A stretch of 64,000 bases of DNA from Bolinopsis microptera. Lineage: Eukaryota > Ctenophora > Tentaculata > Lobata > Bolinopsidae. Of this stretch, positions 12,401 to 18,400 are shown piece after piece. Position 1 is the stretch's first letter. The number at the start of each line of letters is the position of its first letter. The notes beneath the pieces are model-generated. The model had not been told where the DNA came from. It ran no database searches and saw only the letters and a list, made by a program, of their open reading frames with translations. The translations under genes and the position numbers were made by a program. The stretch lies in contig NC_087074.1 of assembly GCF_026151205.1 (NCBI RefSeq), forward strand, positions 9,643,226 through 9,707,225. The letters are read 5' to 3'.

Positions 12401-15400
12401 GTGTTTCCTTGATATTCCTTCTGAGCAGTTATTTAACACAGTTAGATGTAACATTAGTGTAGTTCTTGTTTTAGATTAGCCTAGTTCTTGTTTTATAGTT
12501 AAGTAAAATTAGCGGGCTTGTCACCCCTGATCCCATGGCAACATTAAATATATTGATGGCTAATAGGGCAAACAGCGACCACCGCTTAAGAGCCGTTTAA
12601 GAGCCGTTTAAGAGCCGTTTAAGAACCGCTTAAGAGCCGCTTAAGAACCGTTTAAGAACCGGCTAAGAACCGGCTAAGAACCGCTTAAGAACCGCTTAAG
12701 AACCGGTTAAGAGCCGGTTAAGAGCCGGTTAAGAGCCGGTTAAGAGCCGATGAGCGGCCGCTTAAGAACCGTCTAAGGACCGCTTAAGAACCGCTTAAGA
12801 ACCGTTGAAGAACCGCCTCTAAAACTGCTTAAGAACCGCTTAAGAACCGGTTAAGAGCCGGTTAAGAGCCGGTTAAGAGCCGGTTAAGAGCCGATGAGCG
12901 GCCGCTTAAGAACCGGTTAAGAACCGCCTATAGAAAACAGATTTATAAATCTACTAATAAACTTAGAGCCGTTTAAGAACCGGTTAAGAACCGGATAAGA
13001 ACCGGCTCTTAACCGGTTAAGAACCGCCTATAGAAAACAGATTTATAAATCTACTAATAAACTTAGAGCCGTTTAAGAACCGGTTAAGAACCGGATAAGA
13101 ACCGGCTCTTAACCGGTTAAGAACCGCCTATAGAAAACAGATTTATAAATCTACTTATCAACCTAGAGCCGGATAAGAACCGGCGCGGCTCTTAACCGGT
13201 TAAGAACCGTTGTAGAACCGTCTCTAAACACCCTACACGATTGCTAAACAAGTAAACAGTGAGAAGTTTGTAGACAAAAATTCTCCCGTAAATTTCAGAC
13301 TTTTAATATGTTAATTTTCAGATTTACAATTGGTTAAGAATGAATAGACGATATTTCATGAATAAATTGAAGTAATAGTTATAATGTACATCAATTACTG
13401 TGTTAAATCAATTACAATGTTAAATTACAGAATGAGTTTACAGATAAATCAGTATCCCGCCAAGGGTACCAATGCCACCCCATCTATGTTCAAGGTCTTC
13501 AGCTTCTGTTGTCCGGAAGTGGTGTTGAGGACTGCTGCCGCCAAGGTCTTGGCACGCTTCAGGTTGAGAGTGCTACCGTGGTGTCGTAGCGTCTCCTTAA
13601 ATCGTGTAGGAGACACCAGGAGGGCTTCAGCGATGGGTCTGACGTTCCTCCAGAAGCCACGCTTCACGTTGATACTGTCGAGGGCTTCGTATAGGCCGCA
13701 TCCAGTTCGATGCATCGTGTCCACCACAGATGAGTAGAAATCAGAGTAGACTTGTAGAGGAAGAGGTGTCCTTGTTCTCGTCCCTCGTCTCTGGAGGCCA
13801 GGTGGGCCACGTTGCGGAGCAGGCTGTAGAGGGGGTAGAGGGGCTGAAGCAGCAGAGTTGGTAGGAGGGCTAGAACTGTAGGGAGGTGGAGCTGCGGATG
13901 TTGAGGAGGTTGATGGAGTGTTATCAGAGGTGTTCGTTCCCGTAGCCACGGAGGAGGCTGCAATGGAAGTTGGTCGTAATCCAGTGGGTGGGGGTCTAGC
14001 TGTAGTAGTCTTGTGCGCTGGACAGTTGATAATCCTCACAGTAACATCAAAGCGAGGATGATCGTCGGAGTTACAGGAAACAATCTCCTTCAGGCAGTTG
14101 CCGCAAGAAAAGGCTGGCATCGTAGATGTGTAGTAGGTTCTGGAACAGAGGTCGGATATGTGTCCAGAAGTGCCGCAGTGCTGGCATATAGGGGGAGGAA
14201 CACGCCGTGCTCTTGAGTTAGGATTTCGTCTTGTTCCCACCATAGTATAGGAGTTGAAGTTATCTGTAGTAGAGGATGTAGTAGTTGTTGTAGATAGCAG
14301 AGTGAACGAATGAACAGAACCACGGTGGTCATATATTTATAGTATCCCATAGCTTGTTATTGTCAAGTAGCTGGAGTGCTGGATGCATACAACAAGATGG
14401 TGTCAGATCTTGTCATCAGATCACTTTCTAAAATGTAATCACAGCACGACATACCGTTTTCGTCAACGCGAATGTGATCTGATTCAATACCTATCATTAG
14501 GTGTATCTTGCTAATCGGTACAGTGATATCATATTAACACTGGATCTCGTATCCTATCACGCGACAATTATGTTACAATACGCTTAGCTCAATTAACCCG
14601 GTAATTTGAAACTATTTTGGGTTAACCCAAAGTTCTCTCCAGTGTCCGAACGGGATCCCGGCGCCGGGATTGTGATTTTAATCCCGGCCCCGGCCAATTT
14701 TTCCATTTTGACCGGGAATTTAGCCGGGATTTTTTACAAAAAATAGCTCGGTAATTCTGGAGTTTGTGATAAAAATTGGCTCTGCCAAAGCCCGAAATTT
14801 AAAAAATTAATCGAAGGATTGAAATTTTAGTTTATCGTTGATCATTCATGTATACATTTTGAAAAGCATGTTGTAAAGTATAATCAATTGAGTACTGAAG
14901 CAACACTAATTAACATATTATACCATAAAAATTCTAGAAATCCCGGCCAAATATCCCGGCCCCGGCAAAATCCTGCTCCCGGCCAAATCCCGGCCGCGGC
15001 TAAAAAATGCTAATCCCGGCCAAATCTTAAACCCCGGTCGGTTACTGGTTCTCTCAAATAATAGCGTTAGGGTATGCCAACACGTCGCGAAGCATTGCTA
15101 TTATGTACTATTTAGGGTATAGAATACCCGACTATAAGAGTATGAATACCTTATCGGTGGAAAATTTTCCGTTGAAAAGTTTGCCTCAATCTCGATTTTG
15201 CAAAAATAGGTCAATAATTAGCAAATAAGATTTTTTAGCGAATTTTCGATGAAAATTGAGTTGGATTTCTAAGTTTTAATTTTATTGAAATAAAACATGT
15301 TAATAACATGATGAGTATAACTAAGAAATGCTGACAGCCAAAATCATAGAAATTCATCGGGCGGTAGAAAATTTTCCAGCCAAAAGTTTTCCGGTTAAAA

Positions 15401-18400
15401 GTTCTCCGGTTAAAACTCTGCACCGATAAGGTAACTTAAAACCGTAATATGCAATAAGACCCCCCTGTTTCGCGGATTTTGGAAGGAAATATTTGTGCCT
15501 CAAAACCGCGAATCCATGACCCAAATATATTGGTCTAACTGGTAACACAGGCCACGATAATACCTTGCTGCACTACAAAACACCTCAATATGCTTTCATT
15601 TATACAGAGTGGGCCAGAACATCGCGGCCCGATTATCAACCGTGGTCCCAAAATTTTCAAAATGAAAAAAAAAATCAAAGTTTTTCTAAAAATTGTATTT
15701 CTGCATGTTTCATGTGATTCCAATCATTTTGAGCAAAAACTTTTTTTTTCAAATTTTCCAAATTTCCAATCGAGGAAAACTTTATTCAACCACGACCAAG
15801 GTGAGTTAATTTTTAGCGTTAACCACCGAGAAGTGCTACACTGCCACCCTCCCCCACCCTTCGTGCGCGGTTTATGAGGCCCAAACTTTTCATCCCGAGA
15901 TATTTTAAATTTAATCATACCATAATCAATCCGCTATTCTTCCACGTTAAAATTAACAATACCTACGCTACAATTTTGTCTGCGAAATAATATATCCTTA
16001 GTTTAAACTGGTTTGAGTGCTGCTCCCTTCAATGATAGGCGATGCCCTGGTGGAGCTCACTTCGTGTCCATCCGCACTGACTCCCTCCTGGCCAGGAAAC
16101 AGATACCTGCTATGAAGTTTCTACACCTACTTTGGCTCTACTGTACCTTTAGCAGCGTCTGCCAAGCTGCAGTTACCCTCTCTATGGATCCTAAGAAAGT
16201 CCGGGGATTCTTTAAAGCTATCAGACAGTGCATGGCGGAAGACTTGTTCTCTGGTGACGTGATGATCGGAGGTCCTGGACAGATAGTAGAAATTGACGAG
16301 TCAAAATTCGGCAAAAGAAAGTACAACCGTGGGAGACGAGTAACAGGAAAGTGGGTGTTAGGCGGTGTAGCAAGAGGATCTAACGAATGTTTCCTAGTGG
16401 AATGTCCTAACAACAAGAGAGACCGTAACACACTCTGCCTGTTAATCCTTCGGTTTGTCCGACCTGGAACAACAATTATCACCGATAAATGGAAAGGATA
16501 CCTTCCTCTTGAACATCCTGGATATACTCACTACGATGTCAACCACAGCCGGAATTTTGTAGATCCACTGACGGGAGCCCATACGAACACGATTGAAGGG
16601 ACGTGGTTTCATACGAAGCGGCACGTGAAGAGAGGCCATGGACGGGTGAGAAATGACGGAAAAGCTCTTGCTATCGCACTCTACGAGTTTATGTGGATGA
16701 GAAAACACGGTCTCACTCGCTCTGATCCTGATTGCCGGAGACTTTTCAACAGAGAACTACCACTTTTGATGAAAAGACTGTTTGCATAGTTATAACGTGT
16801 GATAGCGAAGTACTGAATGGATTGATATAATATTTTAATTTATCTGTACATTAAACTCGTTTTGTAATTCAACGTTGTATCTCAGACAATAATTGATCGA
16901 CTATTACTATTCGATTAATCATTTATGTAATTTATTAATCTACCTATGAAATTTCGCCTATTGATTCGAAATAAATTGAAATTCTAACAAAATTGAAGTC
17001 TTAATAATTGCATCTGCGCACTATAAGACATGCATCATGAAATATTGTGATTTGCATCGCGATATTGGGTCGAGCCGTCAGGCGAGATGCTAATAGCAAT
17101 ACAATTATAACAAAAGTGAGGTGCTATTGCCAACATTGTTACGTACGTCAAAAACTACTAACCTAGTCTAAAATGGGGAGGGAGGGGAGTGGAGAGGTGC
17201 TGGGACGGGAGTGGGGGTAAAGACACGAGAGGGAGCAGGGGAGTGGAGAGATGCTGGGGCCGGGAGCGGGGGTAAATACAAGAGAGGGAGCAGGGGAGTG
17301 GAGAGGCGCTGGGGCCGGGAGCGGGGGTAAAGACGAGAGGGAGCAGGGGAGTGAAGAGGTGCTGGGCTGGGAGCGGGAGTAAAGACAAAAGAGGGAGCAA
17401 GGGAGTGGAGTGGTGCTGGGCCGGGAGCGAGGGAAAAGACAAGAGAGGGAGCAGGGGAGTGGAGAGGTGCTGGGTCGGGAGCGAGGGTAAAGACAAGAGA
17501 GGGAGCAGGGGAGTGGAGAGGTGCTGGGTGGGGAGCGGGAGTAAAGACAAAAGAGGGAGCAGGGGAGTGGAGAGGCGCTGGGGCCGGGAGCGGGGGTAAA
17601 GACAAGAGAGGGAGCAGGGGAGTGGAGTGGTGCTGGGCCGGGAGCGAGGGTAAAGACAAGAGAAGGAGCGGGGGAGTTCAAATGTGCTGGGCCGGGTGTA
17701 GGGTGTTTACATGTAGTTTTAGAGACGGTTCTTCAACGGTTCTTAACCGGTTAAGAGCCGGTTCTTATCCGGTTCTTAACCGGTTCTTAAACGGCTCTAA
17801 GTTTATTAGTAGATTTATAAATCTGTTTTCTATAGGCGGTTCTTAACCGGTTCTTAAGCGGTCCTTAGACGGTTCTTAACCGGTTCTTAAACGGCTCTAA
17901 GTTGGTTCTTAGGTTGTTTAAATGCAGTTTTAGAGGCGGTTCTTCAACGGTTCTTAAGCGGTTCTTAAGCGGTCCTTAGACGGTTCTTAAGCGGTTCTTA
18001 AACGGCTCTAAGTTGGTTCTTAGGTTGTTTAAATGCAGTTTTAGAGGCGGTTCTTCAACGGTTCTTAAGCGGTTCTTAAGCGGTCCTTAGACGGTTCTTA
18101 AGCGGCCGCTCATCGGCTCTTGACCGGCTCTAAACCGGCTCTTAACCGGCTCTTAACCGGTTCTTAACCGGTTCTTAAGCGGTTCTTAGCCGGTTCTTAG
18201 CCGGTTCTTAAACGGTTCTTAAGCGGCTCTTAAGCGGTTCTTAAACGGCTCTTAAACGGCTCTTAAACGGCTCTTAAGCGGTGGTCGGTCTTTGACCTAC
18301 TTCCCATATTGATTATTGACTCTGTAGTCTGTTATATCGCTCTCTCAAATTATTTGATATATTATACCTATTTATATATAGTAACTTGTTAAAAGTATTA

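What the first reader, a model, noticed from the sequence alone, without database searches (positions are those of the whole stretch)
12550..18313. Complete Merlin-like transposon with inverted terminal arrays and a perfect 8-bp target duplication
Seen: ATATTGAT on both sides, GG-starting ends, terminal inverted repeats of over 600 bp made of 11-bp units, and an internal ISXO2/Merlin-type DDE triad. Known: Merlin elements make 8-9 bp duplications and usually have short simple ends. Inference: this is an enlarged, array-ended Merlin lineage, carried as intron sequence of a host gene.
Basis: partly seen in the sequence, partly recalled or inferred. Interest (0 to 1): 0.8.

Follow-up and report, generated by a model that had tools for sequence, protein, structure and literature searches.

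The report
Merlin transposon with long repeat-array ends
This is a real DNA transposon of the Merlin group whose two ends are long runs of a short 11-letter unit; related families in the same genome keep the 11-letter spacing while the letters change, and they also carry a second conserved gene.

Summary
It is one of a family: of 20 copy loci fetched, 15 have both ends (14 of these intact to the last base) and 10 of the 15 carry an exact 8-bp duplication. Three copies sit in other repeats whose uninterrupted copies show the empty site with one 8-mer. The transposase is IS1595/Merlin type with an intact DDE triad, but this copy lacks about 63 N-terminal residues, so it is not self-sufficient. 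It probably lies in an intron of a mannose-6-phosphate-receptor-like gene. (1) Related families in the genome have terminal arrays of dissimilar units with the same 11-bp period; another 8-bp-duplicating family, also in this window, has 10-bp units. (2) The minus-strand ORF at 13449-14243 is a conserved second gene (zinc knuckle, proline-rich linker, helix-turn-helix-like end), with dN/dS 0.10-0.39 in the families tested. Most likely the arrays are protein-binding sites spaced one helical turn apart; that step is inferred. New variant of a known kind.

The parts
12550..12557 (.). left 8-bp target site duplication ATATTGAT
12558..18305 (+). Merlin-family A element, 5,748 bp, GG...CC ends
   Evidence: same ends in the other copies
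12558..13238 (+). left terminal inverted array of 11-bp units (such as ACCGGTTAAGA), 39 unit matches
17701..18305 (-). right terminal inverted array of 11-bp units, 40 unit matches
13449..14243 (-). ORF2, 264 aa, open from Met to stop: CCHC zinc knuckle, Pro/Ser-rich linker, C-terminal domain; second gene conserved in related Merlin families
   Evidence: selection test covers families B and C, not this copy
16038..16789 (+). transposase, IS1595/Merlin type, N-terminally truncated; open frame 16007-16789
16295..16297 (+). catalytic D1 codon
16484..16486 (+). catalytic D2 codon
16595..16597 (+). catalytic E codon
17183..17696 (.). 54-bp internal tandem repeat, 9.5 copies, next to the right array
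18306..18313 (.). right 8-bp target site duplication ATATTGAT
12198..12385 (+). exon-like stretch with a mannose-6-phosphate-receptor repeat (CIMR), followed by GTGAGT at 12386
35511..39393 (.). second array-ended insert (family F), non-coding, 10-bp units, GG ends, 8-bp duplication AAACAATC at 35503-35510 and 39394-39401

Best explanation
The insert is a copy of an array-ended, two-gene Merlin (IS1595-type DDE) cut-and-paste transposon family. SHOWN: fixed GG ends, 8-bp duplications, matching empty sites, an IS1595-type DDE transposase, terminal inverted arrays of 11-bp units, and a second gene, ORF2, that is conserved across families and under purifying selection in the two families tested. 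INFERRED: the transposase, and probably the zinc-knuckle/helix-turn-helix-like ORF2 protein, bind the reiterated units. Because the units repeat every 10-11 bp, one turn of B-DNA, the bound proteins would line up on one face of the helix. That would give both ends specific and cooperative recognition before the transposase cuts at the GG and inserts with an 8-bp stagger. Unit sequence can drift through array turnover together with its binding protein, while the spacing stays fixed. This copy has lost the transposase N-terminus and would need a full-length transposase supplied in trans.
For: Copies and duplications: (10 of 15 two-ended copies have an exact 8-mer; about 0.0002 expected by chance). 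Empty sites: L017, L023, L024; L015 inside a satellite, by eye. Transposase. Same period, other units; the A, B and C units are no more alike than shuffles. D carries two dissimilar 11-bp arrays. ORF2: a profile of A, B and C finds it in distant families G and H at 1.8e-8 and 7.7e-7; best of 998 shuffles 0.11; dN/dS 0.10-0.39 within B, 0.16 for C1-C2, 0.16-0.26 B-C; 11 of 24 ORF2 hits start within 5 kb of a transposase hit; random mean 0.08, maximum 2. Analogy: the Galileo transposase THAP domain binds several sites in its long repetitive TIRs (PMC3688188; abstract and Discussion).
Against: No binding, expression or excision data. The constant 11-bp period could be inherited by array slippage without function, and an 11-bp tandem array also occurs outside the element in this window (19997-20145). 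Distant families G and H have ORF2-like genes but no long 11-bp arrays, so ORF2 cannot be there only for such arrays. ORF2 orientation relative to the transposase varies (divergent in A, B, C; same strand in D and G; convergent in H). The ORF2 single-sequence fold is low confidence (pLDDT 44). 5 of 15 two-ended A copies, 1 of 3 B copies and 1 of 2 C copies lack the 8-bp duplication.
Confidence: 0.6

Rival explanations
1. The arrays are passive: tandem slippage and gene conversion between the arms lengthened ordinary Merlin TIRs, and the 11-bp period is inherited from one ancestral array.
For: Slippage keeps unit length while sequence drifts; A-D and B-E units are still recognisably alike (8 and 9 of 11); the families are related (transposases of B, C and D 54-57% identical to A); TIR-embedded tandem repeats are known in another foldback transposon (PMC4079207 abstract); an 11-bp tandem array also occurs outside the element.
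Against: D carries two dissimilar 11-bp arrays, and F has a one-turn period of 10 bp; several dissimilar arrays at 10-11 bp are not expected from drift alone.
Confidence: 0.3
2. Classical foldback or P/Galileo-type element that merely carries a captured Merlin gene.
For: Long TIRs made of tandem repeats resemble foldback elements (listing and abstracts).
Against: 8-bp duplications, GG ends and an IS1595-type transposase occur together in families A, B, C, D, G and H, so the transposase and ends belong together.
Confidence: 0.03
3. ORF2 is a passenger or regulator (for example an RNA-binding or silencing-control protein) and the arrays are bound by the transposase N-terminal domain alone.
For: The C-x2-C-x4-H-x4-C knuckle is typical of RNA or single-strand binding (recalled); ORF2-like genes also occur in families without long arrays.
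Against: Its conserved C-terminal part looks like a helix-turn-helix by eye (sequences; low-confidence helices).
Confidence: 0.3

Closest known systems
Merlin superfamily (IS1016/IS1595-related eukaryotic DNA transposons; PMC8101967)
   Same: DDE_Tnp_IS1595 domain, DDE triad, 8-bp duplication, 5'-GG ends; imperfect TIRs and internal tandem repeats have been reported
   Different: terminal arrays of 11-bp units with arms of about 570 bp (A), 590-630 bp (B) and 840-910 bp (D) exceed the 24-462 bp cited there (C's arms, 340-400 bp, do not); a conserved second gene is not described in the parts of that paper that I read
Galileo (P superfamily) and foldback elements such as Tetris
   Same: [quoted passage not shown] in Galileo the transposase domain binds several sites in them
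   Different: Galileo has a P-type transposase; the repeat unit in Tetris is about 220 bp (abstracts)
CACTA (En/Spm) elements with TnpA bound to reiterated subterminal motifs (recalled)
   Same: two-protein logic: a DNA-binding partner on reiterated terminal motifs plus a transposase
   Different: 3-bp duplications, CACTA ends and an unrelated transposase (recalled)
Bacterial IS1595 family (NCBIfam NF033547)
   Same: transposase scores 81.6 bits against a curated cut-off of 75
   Different: IS1595 members have a single transposase gene according to PMC8101967 (passage)

Membership tests
Merlin | DDE_Tnp_IS1595 / IS1595-type transposase | tested here: met
   Pfam PF12762 E=7.2e-14, 52.5 bits against cut-off 27; NF033547 81.6 bits against 75
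Merlin | intact DDE triad in the three conserved blocks | tested here: met
   D, D, E invariant in 6 of 6 aligned families; window codons 16295, 16484, 16595
Merlin | 8- or 9-bp target site duplication | tested here: met
   exact 8-mer in 10 of 15 two-ended A copies, 2 of 3 B copies, 1 of 2 C copies, the one D copy, and one copy each of G and H
Merlin | ends begin 5'-GG | tested here: met
   both ends in 14 of 15 two-ended A copies, L011 altered on the left; B, C, D. For G and H the scan asked for GG, so it is no independent test there
Merlin | TIR length 24-462 bp as published | tested here: not met
   571-nt ungapped arms. A descriptive range, not a defining limit
Merlin | grouping with known Merlin and IS1016 proteins in a tree | not tested
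   scans of genome contigs and viral contigs with the transposase alignment returned no confirmed relative; no named eukaryotic Merlin set was at hand
Foldback element (structural class) | long terminal inverted repeats made of tandem repeats | tested here: met
Foldback/Galileo (P or MULE transposase) | P- or Mutator-type transposase | tested here: not met
   only an IS1595-type match in Pfam at E up to 1
Merlin (family F, 35511-39393) | IS1595-type transposase | tested here: inconclusive
   8-bp duplications in 5 of 5 two-ended copies examined (window copy and L077-L080, read by eye) and GG ends, but the window copy is non-coding and no transposase-bearing copy was identified

The most novel reading that the evidence does not exclude
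A Merlin lineage that is a true two-component transposon: a second conserved protein (zinc knuckle plus helix-turn-helix) and the transposase assemble on helically phased arrays of 10-11 bp units at both ends. Unit sequence and protein coevolve quickly while spacing is held at one DNA turn, so that the families in one genome become mutually insulated.
Probability: 0.35. Interest if true: 0.75.

Novelty: new variant of a known kind. Interest (0 to 1): 0.6.

Why it matters
Why some transposons carry very long, internally repetitive ends is unsettled: the Galileo authors call their function uncertain (PMC3688188, Discussion). Here several related families, some with nearly identical copies, share one spacing with different sequences, a natural experiment that separates spacing from sequence. 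A conserved second gene would also change the picture of Merlin as a transposase-only element.

Tried and rejected
Rejected: chance inverted repeat (many copies with fixed ends); satellite insertion (duplications and empty sites); 'ORF2 is a chance opposite-strand frame', the reading that PMC8101967 gives for an ORF overlapping the transposase in Symbiodinium: here ORF2 does not overlap the transposase, is conserved across families and shows dN/dS below 0.4 in the pairs tested (families B and C).

Led nowhere: Pfam, NCBIfam and PDB profile searches with ORF2 gave at best a weak zinc knuckle (zf-CCHC E=0.015 in 1 of 3 members) and matches that lie mostly in the low-complexity linker. A viral-contig scan with ORF2 gave one locus matching only residues 12-32, and the family B transposase found nothing in it. 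Transposase scans of genome contigs and viral contigs confirmed no relative. The AlphaFold model of ORF2 from a single sequence has pLDDT 44 and was not used for a fold search. Unit-to-unit likeness between A, B and C was not above shuffles. An empty allele of the window copy itself was not found: its joined flank hits only itself and eight diverged pieces (74-84%), seven of them across the join; the four that were fetched and aligned show gaps or substitutions at the 8-mer. The host species was not identified.

Literature: searches (listings) showed no report of Merlin with 11-bp terminal arrays or a conserved second gene. The library is open-access only, Repbase and supplements were not available, and PMC8101967 states that several Repbase Merlin families have internal tandem repeats in a table I could not read. 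Seen of papers: PMC8101967 abstract, passages, section 10 part 1 and section 11; PMC3688188 abstract and Discussion; PMC4079207 abstract; the rest listings only.
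Full report
Observation. The two ATATTGAT 8-mers bound a 5,748-bp insert. The outermost bases are GG...CC; by eye the two ends agree at 17 of their first 23 positions, and the arms are 571 nt, 89% complementary without gaps. TRF and a unit scan give an 11-bp period through both arms, with 39 and 40 unit matches and 29 of 38 and 34 of 39 spacings of exactly 11. Lag 11 is the top autocorrelation in both arms (0.76, 0.75); of 265 overlapping control stretches of the window 9 reach 0.5 at any lag, none of them at lag 11, and one at lag 11 lies between 0.45 and 0.5. Against uniqueness: TRF finds another 11-bp array in the window outside the element, at 19997-20145.

It is a transposon family. 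The window is part of a 264.65-Mb genome in 232 contigs, and the left end gives 48 matches, often several per copy. I fetched 20 regions covering most of them; several shorter matches were not fetched. Fifteen loci have both ends, and in 14 of these both ends run to the same terminal GG/CC; L011 has altered outer left bases. Ten of the 15 have an exact 8-bp duplication: L009 (window), L012, L013, L015, L016, L017, L023, L024, L026, L027. Five do not: L010, L011, L019 (5 bp only), L022, L025. Five loci have one end only (L014, L018, L020, L021, L028). Chance would give about 15/65,536 exact 8-mers.

Empty sites. Joined flanks of six copies (window, L012, L016, L017, L023, L024) were searched in the genome (only the best 40 of 1,255 candidates were scored). 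L017, L023 and L024 hit 20, 9 and 12 uninterrupted places at 98-100% across the join; one example of each was fetched and aligns over 172 bp without a gap (171, 172 and 172 identical) with one copy of the 8-mer. The other three gave no listed hit. L015 lies in a 48-bp satellite whose neighbouring uninterrupted units carry a single GGTTTAAG (by eye). For the window copy the joined flank hits only itself and eight diverged pieces (74-84%), seven across the join. The four fetched align through the join but with gaps or substitutions at the 8-mer, so they show an old repeat at the site rather than a clean empty allele.

Transposase. The open frame 16007-16789 matches DDE_Tnp_IS1595 (E=7.2e-14) and the IS1595 equivalog domain above its cut-off. 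D, D and E are invariant in the 6 sequences aligned. About 63 N-terminal residues, with most of what I read as a zinc ribbon, are absent here but present in copies L015, L018 and L019. L019 has a 328-aa open frame but no ORF2 match; L015 and L018 lack a central part of the transposase. So I saw no A copy with both genes intact among those fetched.

Other families in the same genome. The transposase gives 111 matches, many of them fragments. Family B (about 3.4 kb; 3 copies examined) has inverted arms of about 590-630 bp with 11-bp unit GCACACCTCGG, ends GGTAACTCGG, and duplications GAATCGTC and AAAACATG in two copies, none in the third. Family C (about 4 kb; 2 copies examined end to end) has unit ACATTAAGACA/TGTTGTCTTAA, arms of 340-400 bp, ends GGCAACTTG, duplication GGGTTTTG in C1, none in C2. 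Its transposase is identical over 315 codons at five places on four contigs, which implies recent movement. Family D (1 copy, about 4.85 kb) has arms of about 840-910 bp with two dissimilar 11-bp arrays, GGTTAGTAGCC and GACGTTGCATA, and duplication CATAGTAG. L042 (E) carries arrays of GGGCACACTTG, also 11 bp. Lag 11 is the top lag in both arms of A, B1, B2, C1, C2 and D1. Units of A and D are alike (8 of 11), and of B and E (9 of 11); the A, B and C units are no more alike than shuffles. More distant families G and H (39-40% identical to A) have 8-bp duplications and GG ends (found by a scan that asked for GG) but short TIRs with 14-15-bp palindromic units, not 11-bp arrays.

A second array-ended insert lies in the window at 35511-39393: GG ends, duplication AAACAATC, 10-bp units, no coding frame. 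Its end gives 195 matches, several per copy, with 40 of 252 candidates scored. Four small copies fetched (L077-L080) all show an 8-bp duplication, read by eye from the flanks. I could not tie it to a transposase, so its Merlin membership is likely but unproven.

ORF2. The minus-strand frame 13449-14243 (264 aa) has no Pfam match of its own. Relatives lie beside transposases: of 24 ORF2 matches, 11 start within 5 kb of a transposase match, against a mean of 0.08 and maximum of 2 in 2,000 random placements; 13 do not. A, B and C proteins align with 31-32% identity to A, conserving a C-x2-C-x4-H-x4-C knuckle, further cysteines, a proline-rich linker and a C-terminal block with R-x-IAEA and a final tyrosine. 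A profile of the three (with the C linker shortened) finds frames in G and H at 1.8e-8 and 7.7e-7 in a database with 998 shuffled decoys, whose best is 0.11. dN/dS is 0.10-0.39 among B copies, 0.16 for C1-C2 and 0.16-0.26 between B and C (few changes within families, dS near saturation between them; family A was not in this test). The single-sequence structure model is poor (pLDDT 44) with helices in the C-terminal part. The helix-turn-helix label is my reading of the sequence, not a database match.

Host context. Frames at 5272, 12198 and 44348 on the + strand match the mannose-6-phosphate-receptor repeat above its curated cut-off, one at 7106 falls just below it, and one at 47914 does not match. 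The 12198 stretch runs up to ATGAC at 12385, followed by GTGAGT, so the insert most likely lies in an intron of that gene; splicing was not tested. Between 20.6 and 41.2 kb on the minus strand lie a RING/B-box/NHL frame and two major-facilitator transporter frames.

Mechanism. Cut-and-paste transposition with an 8-bp stagger follows from the ends, duplications and empty sites. The role of the arrays is inferred: the period stays at one turn of DNA while the sequence differs, D holds two different arrays of that period, and a conserved, probably nucleic-acid-binding second gene travels with the transposase. In Galileo the transposase domain was shown to bind sites within repetitive long TIRs (PMC3688188, abstract and Discussion). 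Against this: families G and H have the second gene without long arrays, and slippage alone can preserve a period.

Known or new. Merlin is known, and long or imperfect TIRs and internal tandem repeats in Merlin have been reported (PMC8101967: abstract, passages, section 10 part 1 and section 11). The searches showed no report of 11-bp terminal arrays shared across Merlin families or of a conserved second gene, with the limits stated in Tried and rejected.

Noticed in passing
window 35511-39393: Second array-ended insert (family F): GG ends, 8-bp duplication AAACAATC, 10-bp units in inverted arrays, a long TG run inside, no coding frame; 195 matches to its end in the genome, several per copy.
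   Followed up: partly
window 12198-12385, 5272-5616, 7106-7423, 44348-44785: Exon-like stretches with mannose-6-phosphate-receptor (CIMR) repeats on the + strand (the one at 7106 just below the cut-off): a gene that may span much of the window.
   Followed up: partly
window 20648-22747, 32437-33876, 39736-41178 (minus strand): A RING/B-box/NHL (TRIM-like) frame and two major-facilitator transporter frames, possibly nested in introns of the CIMR gene.
   Followed up: no
window 9420-11546 (+): 709-aa open frame with no Pfam match at E up to 0.1; by eye it recalls a Penelope-like or other reverse-transcriptase element (recalled, not tested).
   Followed up: no
L025 (C8:1594067-1595183) and L028 (C3:1807661-1812451): Two family A copies share the same 20-bp flank beside the left-type end, so one is probably a duplicated segment, or both lie in copies of one repeat.
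   Followed up: no
L075 (C4:3519000-3525000), L076 (C2:12622000-12628000): Distant Merlin families G and H with short TIRs built of 14-15-bp palindromes and an ORF2-like frame in other orientations.
   Followed up: partly
C1 and C2 copies (L035+L059, L036+L060): The ORF2 linker of family C differs in length between the two copies (346 and 422 aa proteins) through tandem repeats of about 24 bp coding for Pro/Ala/Thr.
   Followed up: no
window 57561-58382, 31383-31643, 42832-43142, 19997-20145: Other tandem arrays: 24-bp x 34, 13-bp x 20, 20-bp x 15.6, and an 11-bp x 13.5 AT-rich one; not linked to the element.
   Followed up: no
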